NCBI GenBank assembly: GCA_013176395.1
Contig: JABMLP010000016.1
Span: 1,178,001 to 1,242,000 of the forward strand
Source: Venturia oleaginea
Taxonomy: Eukaryota > Ascomycota > Dothideomycetes > Venturiales > Venturiaceae
Length of the DNA: 64,000 bases
Direction of reading: 5' to 3'
In this document: positions 5,449 through 11,046 of the stretch, piece after piece
Layout: each line of letters starts with the position of its first letter
How positions within the stretch are numbered: position 1 is the first letter of the stretch
Notes under the pieces: generated by a model
What the model saw: the letters and a program-made list of their open reading frames with translations, nothing else
Databases searched by the model: none
What the model was told of the DNA's origin: nothing
Translations under genes and position numbers: made by a program

Positions 5449-6739
5449 AGCAATAGCTTGTTCGCGGCGAAGCAGAAACAGCAGGAACAGCAGTTCATGA
5501 CACCTCTCTTTCCTTAGCCGAATTGCTTTGTATGATGTAAATACGTAGACAGGTAGAAAAGCTTCAGATGACTCCTTTTGACGATAGATAACTTTCGATA
5601 CTTGAGAGTACTCAGAACATGACTAAAGGCAATCGTTGCCCTCTTAAGTTTACCTACTCACGCTGGTTAAAAAACGAAATCTGCCTAGCTATACACGTGA
5701 GATTCATGTGACATCAATATCTTCTAGTCTCTCAGCCCATACATAGTTAAAGGTTCTTGACAAAAAATCGAGATAATTATTATCTAATGCCCACAGCAAG
5801 CCCTACTACTTTGCTTCGTTCACTTTACTTATGTGCTGCATTTTTGCCGTCCTTTTCAAGCCTCTTCACGTTTGTTCCCAAACATCATCAAAGTCCGCCA
5901 TCGGTCTTCAGTTCAGCATCACTTCTACTATTAGCTTACTCCAGCCTTCAGGGCAGTGCTAACGTGCAGCCAGCAACGCTGCCACCCGGGTGACAAATAA
6001 GTATTGCGGGCCATAGAAGTGATTCTGAATTCTCACCCAAAGTTGCAACTTCGAGTTGGTATTCCTCCACGACTATACAGGAATGATTCTAGGAATTACA
6101 AGTAGTATTCCTTAATTAAAACTACGATACCATCTCTTTCGATTTTTAATTTCGACTGTTGGAGAGAAAAGTATTGTTTCGTACTCTGCTTTTTGGTGAG
6201 GAAAACAGCTTGGATAGGCCCGCAATATTTGTCACCCGGGTGGCTGCTCATTGTCCCTAGAGAAATGAGAATGCCTTTTATGAATGAAGGAGAAAGCCTC
6301 ACCAAAAGTAGTCACTAGGAATGCTAACGTGCAACGTAGACGCCAGAAATGAACGAAGTGTTTTACACATTACAGATCGTAATTTCCACATTACAGATCG
6401 TATGGGCATGCTATTATGCAGGTTTCCGCAAGACAGTCGCTCTTCTCGGAATGCGATGGCAGTGTACTTAGTCTGTCTACCCGCTGAGTGAGAGTGTCCT
6501 TCAATTTCGTCTTGTTTGATTTGTTCGATTGGTTCGCTCCTCATAGAGTCTCTTCGCTCTTTTTGCTATCCTTTCTTCTATAGCACGCTGGTCGCGCTTG
6601 TTTATATCGTCTCTCGGACAAGCTACCATACCTTAATTAAAATTCTCTTTACACTCCGATCAGTTATATTACTACTTGCAACTTGGATAAGCACTCTCAC
6701 TTGTCAGTATCCATCACGCAAAAGGACTCAAAGCCTAGG
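5449..6739. other. intergenic region with MITE and short repeats
   Basis: No gene is supported. The region carries the MITE at 5983-6242, a 12-bp direct repeat (TGCTAACGTGCA at 5957-5968 and 6322-6333) that brackets it, and a 16-bp direct repeat CACATTACAGATCGTA at 6366-6381 and 6387-6402 (period 21). The stretch just before 6740 is the presumed leader of the HET gene. Confidence 0.6.
5983..6242. mobile_element. MITE, 260 bp, terminal inverted repeats, 5-bp TSD
   Basis: The ends are inverted repeats of about 28-30 bp starting CACCCGGGTGACAAATA and reaching GCGGGCC (5983-6012 and 6217-6242); the left copy has a 4-base insertion. Direct repeats GCTGC flank it (5978-5982 and 6243-6247) and can be read as the target-site duplication. 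No coding capacity is seen. It is a non-autonomous DNA transposon; the superfamily is not assigned. Confidence 0.65.
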
Positions 6740-8779
6740 ATGTCAAAACACACGAGGGACAGGTCGCTCATATCGAGGGCAGTTCATCGAGTCTTAAAAG
6801 ACAAGCACTACCGCCTCGCTGCGCAAGAACATCCATACGAACCTCTACTCACCCAAGAACATCAATACGAACCACTGCCATGCGGAGAAGAGTATACGAG
6901 GGTGGTCGTTCTTCAGCCGGCCGAAGACTTCGATGACGATTTGGTATGCCAGATCGAAGCGGTGAAATATCAAGAACCGGGGGTCCTTTTCGAAGCAATC
7001 TCCTACGCTCAGGGCCGCAGCACATTTCCGAAAATCCTAAGATGTATAACTGGTTGTTCTCACAGCCATCTCAGTATCACTCCAAACCTCGCGAATGCTC
7101 TCCGATACCTTCGACTCTCAGATGAGACAAGAACCCTGTGGGTTGATGCCGTCTGTGTCAACCAGGAAGATGCTCAAGAGAAGGCTTCCCAGGCAGCTCA
7201 GGTTGGCTGCATTTTTGCTGCGGCGCAAAGAGTGTCGGTATGGCTTGGGTTGCTCGACGAAGAGACTGCCGAAGCCTTCAATTTATGTCATGTTTTGGAA
7301 GACTCGGCGATTTCGTGCGGTCTCAGTAAAGATCATGAACCCAGTGTCACCCACACGGACTGGATCTCACCGGGCCCAAAAAGAGCGAGAAAAAATCTCG
7401 CTTGCGACTCTGTCCGCCAACAGAAAGGACTCGCCTTCAAACGGTTCCTGGAACGCCCGTGGTTCAATCGTCGCTCGCCAAGTCAGGAGACGTTCTTTGG
7501 GCGCGCAGTCCGGGTGCATTGTGGCAGTTCAATGATAGAAGCCGAGATCCTGGGACTGGCCATCGTAACCTCGCACGTTGTCAAGACAACACGAGCCCGC
7601 TCAACAAGAAGCACAAGCAAAGTTTCGTGCGACAACATAAATAAGAATATTCTCGGTCTTGCAGAAAAACTTGTTCGAATGGAGTTGGGAAGCACTTCCA
7701 GTATGCGGTACAAGGGGCAAAGCAAACGAAAGCAGTACCCCATTCTCCACCTACTTTCGAACGACGAGGATACCAATTTGTCTGACTCCAGGGAAGTCAT
7801 AGGTTCACAACTTAGCATTTCAACAATGACAAGTTTTAAAATCGATTACAGTGCCTCCGTGGAAGATACGTACATCGAATTCGCATACCATTGCATACAT
7901 TACCAATATCCACTGCAATCACCTTATGAAGTCATCCACCACGCCGCTCGCTGGAAAGACGTTCGCAGCGTCTCTGATCCACCGGAGCTAATCCTTCCGT
8001 CATGGGTCCCAGATTGGCGCAAGAAAAAGCCTGGATTGCTACTTACTGCTCACCCCAGCGTCTTCCGTTCAGCAACCCACATGCCCGCTCGCTTACTCGT
8101 CTCACCAGACAAACTCTGTCTCACCGCCGGTGGTTTACAAGTAGGCAAGATCAACACACGGAGTTGGCACGCCACTACCTCTCTAGATTCGGTATGGCTA
8201 GGTAATAGATACACCGAGAAACACGCTGAATATCAACTCCTCGGCTGGAAACGCGTTTATGAAAAGATGCTTGTTACGAACGGAGGCGCAATCCTTGCTT
8301 ATACGCTTATTGCTGGTGGAAGACCTGCGGATGTGAGGCAGAGTTTGGATGCGCATCTCGCGTGTACGAGGATGGAAGATATCTTTGATGTTTTGTGTGC
8401 GCATGTTCAACTAGGCGATGCGTTCTCAGATTGGCCAGAGTCGGCACGAGACTATTTTCGTTGTTTTCGCAACGTCATGAAACAACGGACGATATTTATG
8501 GTTGAGAGCAGGGAAAGAACGTATCTCGGTATTGGGCCTGAGTCTCTTCAGGCCGACGATGTTCTTGTTGTTCTGATGGGTGCGGAGACGCCTTTTATAT
8601 TGAGACCGGTTAACTATAGTCCTGGAGTAGCGTATTATCGTCAGTATAGTGGACGAGAAGGGGAGATCTCGCCGGAGGTGGGAAATTATGAGGTTGTTGG
8701 GGAGTGTTATGTTCATGGGTTGATGGAGGGGGAGGTGTGTGATTTGATGTTGGCAGAGGAGAATTTTGTCATTATTTGA
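6740..8779 (+). CDS. HET-domain (heterokaryon incompatibility) protein
   Basis: Single-exon gene of 679 aa from the ATG at 6740; the frame is open 57 bases upstream but has no ATG there. The HET domain spans about residues 77-250: FEAISYAQG, a stretch ending LRYLRLSDETRTLWVDAVCVNQED, then a Q-rich helix and VSVWLGLLDEE, and later RFLERPWFNR. The C-terminus has the tail typical of these proteins (ERTYLGIGPESLQADD, FILRPVN, VVGECYVHGLMEGE). HET proteins trigger cell death after fusion of unlike strains or act as downstream parts of fungal NLR systems; the partner is unknown. Two signature Trp residues are missing: SYxWG reads SYAQG (Gln91), and the R-x-W-x-x-QE box reads RRSPSQE. It may be a diverged or failing family member. 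A second, broken HET domain lies 4 kb downstream. Confidence 0.85.
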   Translation: MSKHTRDRSLISRAVHRVLKDKHYRLAAQEHPYEPLLTQEHQYEPLPCGEEYTRVVVLQPAEDFDDDLVCQIEAVKYQEPGVLFEAISYAQGRSTFPKILRCITGCSHSHLSITPNLANALRYLRLSDETRTLWVDAVCVNQEDAQEKASQAAQVGCIFAAAQRVSVWLGLLDEETAEAFNLCHVLEDSAISCGLSKDHEPSVTHTDWISPGPKRARKNLACDSVRQQKGLAFKRFLERPWFNRRSPSQETFFGRAVRVHCGSSMIEAEILGLAIVTSHVVKTTRARSTRSTSKVSCDNINKNILGLAEKLVRMELGSTSSMRYKGQSKRKQYPILHLLSNDEDTNLSDSREVIGSQLSISTMTSFKIDYSASVEDTYIEFAYHCIHYQYPLQSPYEVIHHAARWKDVRSVSDPPELILPSWVPDWRKKKPGLLLTAHPSVFRSATHMPARLLVSPDKLCLTAGGLQVGKINTRSWHATTSLDSVWLGNRYTEKHAEYQLLGWKRVYEKMLVTNGGAILAYTLIAGGRPADVRQSLDAHLACTRMEDIFDVLCAHVQLGDAFSDWPESARDYFRCFRNVMKQRTIFMVESRERTYLGIGPESLQADDVLVVLMGAETPFILRPVNYSPGVAYYRQYSGREGEISPEVGNYEVVGECYVHGLMEGEVCDLMLAEENFVII

Positions 8780-9079: not shown

Positions 9080-9084
9080 CGTCC

Positions 9085-9286
9085 TGTTGCAATATGGTGG
9101 TAACACCAACGGTTTCCAAGTCGTTTCAAACCTGTTTGTTCTCACTCTTATTTGCTCGGTATCTCTGCGGTGTCAGAACCTACGTCAGTACACTCTCTTT
9201 GTATAGATAGCCCTCATTTTCCACTCAGTTCGAGGGTTATGCAGTCACTCATTGAATTCATACTTTGTGTTGTTCCACTTCAAACA
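9085..9286 (+). repeat. 5' LTR of Copia-type element
   Basis: It starts TGTTGCAATATGG, ends ACTTCAAACA, and is directly followed by the primer-binding site. A TATA-like TGTATAGATAG lies near 9201 and could be the promoter. Only the last 50 bp are repeated at the 3' end (10792-10841). Confidence 0.8.
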
Positions 9287-9306
9287 GTTATGAGCCCGGC
9301 TATCGC
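9287..9306 (+). promoter_or_regulatory. primer-binding site, half-tRNA-iMet type
   Basis: GTTATGAGCCC (9287-9297) is the reverse complement of GGGCUCAUAAC, the anticodon arm of eukaryotic initiator tRNA. Copia elements are primed by the 5' half of this tRNA cut in the anticodon loop. The site abuts the LTR end, as expected. Confidence 0.7.
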
Positions 9307-9520
9307 TTAAGGGTCTCCATCAGAATACGCTAAACTACTTCGAGCTTACCGCTTTCATTCTATACTCCTCTTCAGGCCTAGAGCTGCTGATTCAGGCACA
9401 ATCTACGCATATCTTTCGTATTTACAGCTATTCTGCCCCGACCCCGACGTCTCCTCCGAGGGAAGTTCCAACAACACATTATCACTTTTCAACCTCCATC
9501 GCTGTACAACGCTCTGCACG

Positions 9521-10624
9521 ATGCCTGCACAATCTACAAGAACCCTAAAGGCCTCAGAAGTCATTCTGGCATCTCTAAAGGACTGGGATGACTGGTTTGC
9601 ACGCCACAAGGCCAACCTCACTCGCGCCGGAATCTGGAAATACGCTAATCCAGCAATTGACGAGCCTACCCTACCTCAAGAGCCTTCACCACCCTCAGCC
9701 TACGAGGCTACAAGCAAGGCCTCAAATGTAGACCGCAATATTACGGTTAATGATCTCTCTACCGAGAACCGCCCGCTATACAAACTTTTACAAGATGACC
9801 ACAGAGAAAAATGGAAGCTATGGTCAAGGGTTGATACTAAACTTGAAGCTTCAATGGTGTCAATTGAGGAATCTATTTCCGCAGAATACGCCAGTCTGCT
9901 AACTGATTCCACTACAGTTTGGCAGATGTTGACGGCCCTCAAGAAGATGATTGCCCCCACCAAAAGAGCTAGGGAATTTGAGGTTTTACGCGACTATCAG
10001 GCGGTATGCAAGGGTCCCAAAGGAAGCTCAATTGAGGCTTGGTTGATGAAGTGGGACAAGGCCTATCGTGACGCCGTAAGGGTGGACTTGCCTGAGGTTA
10101 GTGGAGAGAGACCTTTGTATGCATTCCTTGAAGCTGTACATTCTTATGACAGCTCTTGGGCTTCATCACAACGTCTCTCTATCACCAGGTCAGTGGTAAG
10201 AGGAGAGACAGCGACCTCAATTCAGCAGCTCATCGAAGAATTCAATGCTGAAAGGTCTATCAACTCCCATCGCAAAGGTTTATCACATACATCATTTCAA
10301 ACGGCAACACTCAATGGCCATCAACCATCGTTACCCGGAAGCTCCAATTCCAAAGCTCTTTTGGTGGGGGCAATCATCTTCTTGAGGGCCGTCAACATCT
10401 GCCAAACTGTAGTGGAATCAGTTAGCAGACTGGCGTATTCTGCGGAAATAGATTCCTCAATTGACACCATTGAAGCTTCAAGTTTAGTATCAACCCTTGA
10501 CCATAGCTTCCATTTTTCTCTGTGGTCATCTTGTAAAAGTTTGTATAGCGGGCGGTTCTCGGTAGAGAGATCATTAACCGTAATATTGCGGTCTACATTT
10601 GAGGCCTTGCTTGTAGCCTCGTAG
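9521..10624 (+). CDS. Copia gag fragment fused to antisense-encoded tail
   Basis: A 367-aa frame starts at the ATG at 9521. Residues 1 to about 278 look like a fungal Ty1/copia gag: LKDWDDWFARHKANL, a helical block ending WQMLTALKKMI, and GSSIEAWLMKWDKAY. No CCHC knuckle or protease is reached. From 10354 on, the frame reads the reverse complement of its own 5' region, so the last 90 residues are antisense of gag and have no family meaning. The ORF is best seen as a truncated gag or a capsid-like fragment. Inference: a truncated gag could act in a dominant way on capsid assembly, as known for Ty1 p22, but nothing here proves expression. Confidence 0.6.
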   Translation: MPAQSTRTLKASEVILASLKDWDDWFARHKANLTRAGIWKYANPAIDEPTLPQEPSPPSAYEATSKASNVDRNITVNDLSTENRPLYKLLQDDHREKWKLWSRVDTKLEASMVSIEESISAEYASLLTDSTTVWQMLTALKKMIAPTKRAREFEVLRDYQAVCKGPKGSSIEAWLMKWDKAYRDAVRVDLPEVSGERPLYAFLEAVHSYDSSWASSQRLSITRSVVRGETATSIQQLIEEFNAERSINSHRKGLSHTSFQTATLNGHQPSLPGSSNSKALLVGAIIFLRAVNICQTVVESVSRLAYSAEIDSSIDTIEASSLVSTLDHSFHFSLWSSCKSLYSGRFSVERSLTVILRSTFEALLVAS

Positions 10625-10793
10625 GCTGAGGGTGGTGAAGGCTCTTGAGGTAGGGTAGGCTCGTCAATTGCTGGATTAGCGTATTTCCAGATTCCGGCGC
10701 GAGTGAGGTTGGCCTTGTGGCGTGCAAACCAGTCATCCCAGTCCTTTGGAGATGCCAGAATGACTTCTGAGGCCTTGAGGGTTCTTGTAGATT
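9531..10793. repeat. 440-bp inverted repeat (palindrome) of gag
   Basis: Arms are 9531-9970 and 10354-10793 with a 383-bp spacer. Paired positions add up to 20324 throughout, so there is no indel. I found only two mismatches, at 9547 and 9576. A transcript from the LTR would fold into a hairpin with a stem of about 440 bp. The outer end of the right arm fuses to the LTR inside a short microhomology (CTGCAYAA). Confidence 0.95.
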
Positions 10794-10841
10794 ATGCAGT
10801 CACTCATTGAATTCATACTTTGTGTTGTTCCACTTCAAACA
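10792..10841 (+). repeat. truncated 3' LTR (last 50 bp only)
   Basis: Identical over 50 bases to 9237-9286. The left border is the junction to the inverted gag copy, and the right border is the TSD. So the U3 part and the polypurine tract are missing from this copy. Confidence 0.85.
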
Positions 10842-11046
10842 CGTCCACGCCCAACAATACAATCAGTCATCAACATGCGGCCGAGGAAAAAAACCAAAGC
10901 GACCGCCTCCATTCTCAACCATAGAAAGCCGTATGTTGTAGGTATCAGAAATGATATATACCCGCCTGCTCTCGCTATTCAGCATCCCTAGGAAAACCCA
11001 TACCATTGCCGAAACCACACCAATTTCTACACCCATCCACCCAAAG

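What the first reader, a model, noticed from the sequence alone, without database searches (positions are those of the whole stretch)
9085..10841. Copia-type element carrying a 440-bp near-perfect gag palindrome: natural hairpin-RNA locus
Arms 9531-9970 and 10354-10793 differ at only two sites I could find. The element keeps a full 5' LTR with a TATA-like site, a primer-binding site and a 5-bp TSD. LTR transcription would give a long double-stranded RNA matching Copia gag, a ready source of siRNAs against the parent family, comparable in principle to maize Mu killer. I know of no described fungal case of this design.
Basis: partly seen in the sequence, partly recalled or inferred. Interest (0 to 1): 0.88.

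Follow-up and report, generated by a model that had tools for sequence, protein, structure and literature searches.

The report
Self-folded Copia retrotransposon inserted in fungus
A jumping gene in a fungus appears to have folded back on itself while being copied into DNA and was then inserted as a long inverted repeat; the same genome holds several more such insertions, so faulty copying may build loci that could make double-stranded RNA against the jumping gene itself.

Summary
Window 9085-10841 is one Copia insertion flanked by CGTCC duplications. It has a complete 202-bp 5' LTR, a 14-nt primer-binding site exactly complementary to a tRNA-Met of this genome, gag arms 9531-9970 and 10354-10793 that differ at two of 440 sites, and only the last 50 bp of the 3' LTR.
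New finding: it is not alone. Of 18 gag-bearing loci of this family found in the 46-Mb genome, four are inverted pairs. Including this one, three have perfect 5-bp duplications, and two of those end in U3 on both sides. The fourth (C61) has no perfect duplication.
Best explanation: the plus strand folded back during reverse transcription and copied itself. Minus strong-stop DNA (the 50-bp R-U5 piece) then primed the second strand, and integrase inserted the product. Both junctions show partial homology in just the direction this model needs (windows chosen afterwards).
Hairpin RNA is possible: the predicted fold pairs the arms in register, and Argonaute, Dicer and RdRP domains are present. Transcription and siRNAs are untested. 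Of the copies fetched, only C22 shares most 21-mers with the arms.
A new variant of a known kind; the recurrence is the interesting part.

The parts
9080..9084 (.). left target-site duplication CGTCC
9085..9286 (+). complete 5' LTR, 202 bp, TG...CA; 40 scored matches in the genome at 96-100% identity (itself included)
9202..9209 (+). TATA-like box TATAGATA, 35 bp upstream of the point where the 3' LTR remnant begins in LTR register
   Evidence: promoter function inferred
9237..9286 (+). putative R-U5 (minus strong-stop region); the part repeated at the 3' end
   Evidence: R boundary inferred from TATA distance
9287..9300 (+). primer-binding site GTTATGAGCCCGGC, exact complement of an internal part of tRNA-Met (CAU)
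9301..9520 (+). leader; 9287-9520 is 97-98% identical to the C22, C1:517k and C18:58k copies
9521..9970 (+). left arm: start of gag, open frame running on through the loop (ORF 9521-10624)
9971..10353 (+). loop: single-copy continuation of gag (repeat finder counts 353 nt, as its arms extend further)
10353..10354 (.). junction J1: sense gag switches to inverted gag; 1 shared A, 9 of 13 preceding bases match in the fold-back direction
10354..10793 (-). right arm: inverted copy of gag 9531-9970, two mismatches
10791..10793 (.). junction J2: inverted gag switches to LTR; shared TT and homeology TGACTGCATAA / TGCCTGCACAA (9 of 11)
10792..10841 (+). 3' LTR remnant: exactly the last 50 bp of the LTR
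10842..10846 (.). right target-site duplication CGTCC

Best explanation
The element is an integrated fold-back cDNA of a Copia retrotransposon. Inferred steps: (1) during plus-strand synthesis the growing strand, extended through LTR, leader and the first ~830 nt of gag, folded back at a short imperfect inverted homology and copied itself, giving inverted gag; (2) a minus strong-stop DNA (50-nt R-U5 copy) annealed by its 3' end to the inverted gag near the gag start and primed the second strand, opening the hairpin into a linear duplex with a normal U3 end on the left and a U5 end on the right; (3) integrase inserted it, leaving the CGTCC duplication. Shown here: the anatomy, the TSD, the two junctions, and three further inverted-pair loci of the same family with different fold points. 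If transcribed from the intact 5' LTR, the RNA would form a ~440-bp hairpin that the host's RNAi proteins could cut; that step is possible but untested, and silencing would be a by-product rather than a selected design.
For: Precise TG/CA ends with 5-bp TSD. The C1 inverted pair (1692 bp, arms identical over 792 of 792 bp) ends in U3 on both sides with TSD GATGG; its fold has an 8-nt overlap (random-pair frequency 1.75e-5). The C5 inverted pair ends in U3 on both sides with TSD GTTTC. Repair of an ordinary insertion could not readily place a second, inverted U3 exactly at the original TSD (inference). In our element both junctions show homology in the direction the model needs (J1 fold-back 9/13, random-pair frequency 0.0011; J2 strong-stop priming 9/11, 0.0002) and not in the opposite one (4/13, 0.41; 5/11, 0.11) (which corrects the strand choice of the random pairs). 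The 3' remnant starts 35 bp after the TATA-like box, where an RNA start, and so the strong-stop end, would be expected. The family is a patchwork (leader 97%, gag arm 74%, spacer 92% against the C18:58k copy), as expected from frequent template switching. Gypsy gag control: of 74 matches none forms an equal-score opposite-strand pair within 10 kb.
Against: J1 has two mismatches just before the last shared base, a poor primer end. The R boundary rests on a TATA distance only. C61 (arms 3183 bp, no substitutions) lacks a perfect 5-bp TSD. Homology windows were chosen after seeing the junctions. The true parent copy is not known; C22 gag is 98% identical. The assembly also holds at least one much larger inverted duplication that is not a single Copia copy: on C13 two Gypsy gag matches and two RVT_2 matches of equal score lie in exact mirror positions around 119.65 kb, so arms reach at least about 17 kb, and C37 repeats the spacing of two pairs of C13 matches; inverted duplications in this assembly thus have more than one source, real or artefactual. 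No reads, RNA or small-RNA data.
Confidence: 0.68

Rival explanations
1. Post-insertion rearrangement: a full-length Copia inserted, later suffered a double-strand break, and repair copied 440 bp of gag in inverted orientation while deleting pol and most of the 3' LTR.
For: Would keep the TSD and the LTR end; it needs homology at only one junction, and 1-2 shared bases at the other is typical of templated repair.
Against: Does not explain the C1 and C5 loci, where an inverted U3 end sits exactly at the TSD; both junctions here have directional homology; the breakpoint falls at the expected strong-stop end.
Confidence: 0.17
2. Assembly or sequencing artefact (fold-back reads, collapsed inverted copies).
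For: No reads could be examined; C61 arms have no substitution in 3183 bp and no perfect TSD; a large mirror-symmetric duplication on C13 shows that this assembly holds other inverted duplications.
Against: Repeat edges coincide with element ends flanked by perfect TSDs at three loci; arms here differ at two sites; the C5 inverted pair carries an LTR-element insertion in one arm; Gypsy gag matches show no equal-score opposite-strand pair within 10 kb.
Confidence: 0.08
3. A kept, Mu killer-like silencing locus: the hairpin is transcribed and its siRNAs hold the family down, and this is why it persists. (Not exclusive of the best explanation, which concerns origin.)
For: Intact 5' LTR with TATA-like box; predicted transcript has 455 arm-arm base pairs and MFE -1106.5 kcal/mol; Piwi, Dicer-dimer and RdRP domains present; copies with long open frames over gag exist.
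Against: No RNA evidence; of the copies fetched only C22 shares most arm 21-mers; no AATAAA/ATTAAA signal in the element.
Confidence: 0.25

Closest known systems
Ty1/Copia LTR retrotransposons with half-tRNA-iMet primer (as Drosophila copia and yeast Ty5, recalled)
   Same: TG...CA LTRs, 5-bp TSD, PBS next to the LTR complementary to an internal part of tRNA-Met, RVT_2 in the C18:58k relative
   Different: This copy has no pol and carries an inverted gag copy plus a 50-bp 3' LTR remnant
Mu killer of maize (Slotkin, Freeling and Lisch 2003 and 2005, seen only as cited in passages of PMC11624286)
   Same: Natural inverted duplication of a transposon whose transcript could form a long hairpin
   Different: Mu killer is a DNA-transposon inverted duplication with shown silencing; here a retrotransposon cDNA product with TSD and no RNA data
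Antisense nested EVD insertion in an Arabidopsis rdr6 line (PMC11624286, passages and outline seen)
   Same: LTR retrotransposon (Copia type, recalled), potential LTR hairpin proposed as silencing trigger
   Different: That arose by one EVD inserting into another; here one insertion with a single outer TSD carries the inverted repeat
Fungal Copia clades FunCo1 and GalEa (PMC5445492, passages seen)
   Same: Copia elements of filamentous ascomycetes
   Different: FunCo1 PBS is tRNA-Lys type and fungal GalEa lacks a PBS; this family has a tRNA-Met PBS
Self-primed fold-back products of reverse transcriptase and retroviral strong-stop DNA (recalled)
   Same: Inverted duplication by copying one's own strand from a short inverted homology
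   Different: Here the products are found integrated, three of them with perfect TSDs, at several loci in one genome

Membership tests
Ty1/Copia LTR retrotransposon (non-autonomous copy) | LTRs with TG...CA ends and 5-bp TSD | tested here: met
   3' LTR is only the last 50 bp
Ty1/Copia LTR retrotransposon (non-autonomous copy) | PBS complementary to host tRNA directly after the 5' LTR | tested here: met
   14 of 14 nt, tRNA-Met
Ty1/Copia LTR retrotransposon (non-autonomous copy) | Copia-type reverse transcriptase RVT_2 in the family | tested here: met
   in the C18:58k relative, E 1e-38; absent from the window element itself; the two gag proteins given to Pfam hit no family
FunCo1 / GalEa Copia clades | clade-typical PBS (tRNA-Lys) or lack of PBS | tested here: not met
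   PBS is tRNA-Met against the description in PMC5445492; no RT tree was built
Mu killer-type hairpin silencing locus | long inverted repeat of a transposon | tested here: met
Mu killer-type hairpin silencing locus | transcribed across both arms | not testable with these tools
   no RNA data; intact 5' LTR only
Mu killer-type hairpin silencing locus | siRNAs that silence homologous active copies | not testable with these tools
   RNAi domains present, targets counted in fetched copies
Integrated fold-back cDNA (proposed) | inverted copy inside one TSD-flanked insertion, junction homology in the copying direction | tested here: met
   C1 and C5 have TSDs too; C61 has none that is perfect
Integrated fold-back cDNA (proposed) | extrachromosomal fold-back cDNA in particles | not testable with these tools
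   needs cDNA sequencing

The most novel reading that the evidence does not exclude
This Copia lineage makes integration-competent fold-back cDNA at high frequency, integrase accepts two U3 ends, and the resulting hairpin loci give the host an automatic, self-generated RNAi trigger against each new subfamily: an error-driven counterpart of Mu killer, in fungi.
Probability: 0.2. Interest if true: 0.85.

Novelty: new variant of a known kind. Interest (0 to 1): 0.6.

Why it matters
How a genome first recognises a new retrotransposon is an open question. If reverse transcription itself regularly produces and inserts hairpin copies, silencing triggers arise without any nested insertion or chromosomal rearrangement. 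Several separate loci in one genome, with readable junctions, make this directly testable by small-RNA sequencing and by long-read sequencing of cDNA. Two insertions with U3 at both ends also bear on which DNA ends Copia integrase accepts.

Tried and rejected
Chance: rejected (440-nt arms with two mismatches; only pair of its size listed in 64 kb). Nested or adjacent insertion of two elements: rejected for C8, C1 and C5, since one TSD pair encloses the whole and the fold is not at an LTR end. Autointegration: considered, rejected because neither junction here is an LTR terminus. A pattern search for the initiator tRNA with an unsuitable T-loop motif found nothing tRNA-like; a second pattern gave four places with one sequence, one of which was fetched and confirmed. 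The promoter scan is for bacterial sites and says nothing here. The species was not settled: a window gene is 83% and 82% identical to the best named hits, Venturia nashicola and V. inaequalis, so a Venturiaceae relative; paper searches on V. oleaginea and on Venturia with retrotransposons and RNAi settled nothing (listings only). The junction statistics failed at first for J1-bottom and J2 (wrong offsets), were redone with a partly wrong strand choice for the random pairs, and are given. The C13 mirror duplication, found on rechecking, made me lower the main confidence from 0.70 to 0.68 and raise the artefact rival from 0.06 to 0.08. Searches of held papers for palindromic or fold-back integrated LTR-retrotransposon copies, or fungal retrotransposon hairpin loci, gave no such case in the listings or passages seen; listings were capped and subscription papers are not held.

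Full report
WHAT IS THERE. Window 9085-10841 is one insertion. CGTCC stands on both sides (9080-9084, 10842-10846); the left end is a complete 202-bp LTR and the right end is exactly the last 50 bp of it. Directly after the LTR, 9287-9300 is an exact 14-nt complement of an internal stretch of a tRNA-Met gene of this genome, running through the anticodon. The gag frame opens at 9521. Arms 9531-9970 and 10354-10793 differ at 9547 and 9576 only, and at both sites the right arm agrees with the closest relative while the left arm does not. It is the only inverted pair of 40 nt or more within 8 kb that the repeat finder lists in the window.

RELATIVES. The genome (G000, 46.08 Mb, 61 contigs) holds one close relative with an LTR at both ends at C22 (gag 98%; a ~235-bp insert in gag; its 3' LTR matches over positions 1-172 only) and subfamilies at about 79, 74 and 69% over the gag arm. 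A protein search gave 28 matches; 22 of them, at 68% identity or more, lie in 18 loci, and six are more distant, 37% or less. LTR search: 40 of 95 candidates scored. Of the 20 regions fetched, 18 match only the LTR among my four 5' queries, one (C13) has two LTRs and gag, and one (C7) is a fragment without LTR; at least two of the 18 also hold a Copia RT match (C60:1083k, C6:581k), so not all are solo LTRs. Copies with long open frames across gag exist. LTR and leader are 97-98% alike between copies whose gag arm is only 74% alike, and in the C18:58k copy the spacer is 92% alike again: the family has been shuffled, as template switching between co-packaged RNAs would do.

MORE INVERTED PAIRS. 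Four of the 18 loci are inverted pairs: C8 (this one), C1:517k, C5:59-68k and C61:908-914k. C1 is 1692 bp, LTR-leader-gag followed by the same inverted; arms are identical over 792 of 792 bp, both ends are U3, TSD GATGG, and the fold has an 8-nt overlap. C5 has U3 at both ends and TSD GTTTC; comparing its two ends inwards, one difference is seen in the first 1471 positions; another LTR element sits in one arm, and the fold lies at an imperfect inverted homology. C61 has arms of 3183 bp with two gap positions and no substitution, a loop of about 490 nt and a 4-nt overlap at the fold, but no perfect 5-bp TSD. A fifth place, C7:899k, is a fragment folded with the opposite polarity, 5-nt overlap, no LTR. 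The fold points differ and the copies belong to different subfamilies, so I take them as separate events.

CONTROL AND A RESULT AGAINST. The Gypsy gag family PF03732 gave 74 matches (150 of 247 candidates scored), with no equal-score opposite-strand pair within 10 kb; two close opposite-strand pairs with unequal scores (C48, C25) could not be read. Four of 18 loci against 0 of 74 matches gives Fisher p 0.001; if both unread pairs counted, p 0.014. Loci and matches are not the same unit, counts are lower bounds and folds outside gag would be missed, so this is a guide only. RVT_2, with 150 matches (150 of 205 candidates scored), also shows no equal-score opposite-strand pair within 10 kb by my reading of the list. 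But equal-score Gypsy gag matches on C13 (107.9 kb +, 131.1 kb -) and equal-score RVT_2 matches (102.2 kb -, 136.9 kb +) are exact mirror images about 119.65 kb, and C37 repeats the spacing of two pairs of C13 matches. So the assembly contains a much larger inverted duplication of another kind; I could not read it.

JUNCTIONS. J1 (10353/10354): the sense strand ends in CCAATTCCAA and the site it would have folded onto reads CAAATTCCCT; 9 of 13 match in the fold-back direction (random-pair frequency 0.0011), 4 of 13 in the other (0.41). J2 (10791-10793): the 3' end of a minus strong-stop DNA would read TGACTGCATAA and the gag site TGCCTGCACAA; 9 of 11 match in the strong-stop direction (0.0002), 5 of 11 in the other (0.11). 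Windows were chosen after seeing the sequence, and J1 has two mismatches next to its last shared base. The 50-bp remnant begins 35 bp after TATAGATA, where an RNA start would plausibly lie.

MECHANISM. The simplest account is fold-back of the plus strand in the particle, then second-strand priming by strong-stop DNA: minus strong-stop here, giving a U5 end; plus strong-stop or an equivalent in C1 and C5, giving two U3 ends. Integrase then inserts the duplex. Shown: anatomy, TSDs, junctions, recurrence. Inferred: order of steps, strand identities, the R boundary. Break repair after insertion could produce C8 alone but hardly the U3/U3 loci.

HAIRPIN RNA. A transcript from 9237 to 10841 (1605 nt) is predicted to fold with 455 arm-arm pairs, MFE -1106.5 kcal/mol (no shuffled control was run). 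Piwi (12 matches, 11 over cut-off), Dicer-dimer (3) and RdRP (4) domain matches are present. Exact 21-mers of the arms occur in C22 (296 of 420), in six other fetched gag copies (26, 27, 31, 35, 53 and 53 of 420) and in the C1 inverted pair (106, two arms); none in the fetched C5 and C61 loci. The C1 arms, which include LTR and leader, share 142-751 of 772 21-mers with eight other family loci tested, and none with the 701-base piece at the left end of C5, so C1 is the broader candidate trigger. Nothing here shows transcription or silencing.

KNOWN CASES. Mu killer and an antisense nested EVD insertion in Arabidopsis are the nearest described ideas (passages of PMC11624286). Fungal Copia clades FunCo1 and GalEa differ in their primer site (passages of PMC5445492). 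A re-analysis of fungal hairpin small RNAs (PMC9757828, passages) says that exploration is needed to tell whether long hairpin RNAs induce RNAi naturally in organisms. The searches listed in Tried and rejected found no described integrated fold-back LTR-retrotransposon copies in fungi; the library is partial.

Noticed in passing
L010 3996-5687 (G000:C1:517k): Complete Copia inverted pair with U3 at both ends, TSD GATGG, 792-bp identical arms.
   Followed up: yes
L037/L014 (G000:C5:58829-68445): Copia inverted pair with U3 at both ends, TSD GTTTC, interrupted by an LTR element with 204-bp repeats; a Gypsy gag match lies inside that insert.
   Followed up: partly
L015 1443-8287 (G000:C61): Copia inverted pair with 3183-bp arms, no substitutions, no perfect 5-bp TSD.
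   Followed up: partly
L034 3060-4729 (G000:C7:899k): Copia fragment folded with the opposite polarity (minus-sense pol-gag followed by sense gag), 5-nt overlap, no LTR.
   Followed up: partly
G000:C13:102194-137105 and G000:C37: Gypsy gag and RVT_2 matches of equal score in exact mirror positions about 119.65 kb: an inverted duplication with arms of at least about 17 kb, real or an assembly product; C37 repeats the spacing of two pairs of C13 matches.
   Followed up: no
L009 4300-4540 and L011 525-770: Inserts of about 235-245 bp in gag and in a 5' LTR, 86% alike over 150 bp; look like a small non-autonomous element.
   Followed up: no
L025 642-1160 and 3705-4223: 519-bp inverted repeat, 99.4% identical, in a region that also holds one LTR of this family; possibly a DNA transposon.
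   Followed up: no
window 6683-8779: HET-domain (heterokaryon incompatibility) open frame directly upstream of the insertion.
   Followed up: no
G000:C3:1821k and C61:930k: Two Piwi-domain loci with stops in their second segment, possible Argonaute pseudogenes or introns.
   Followed up: no
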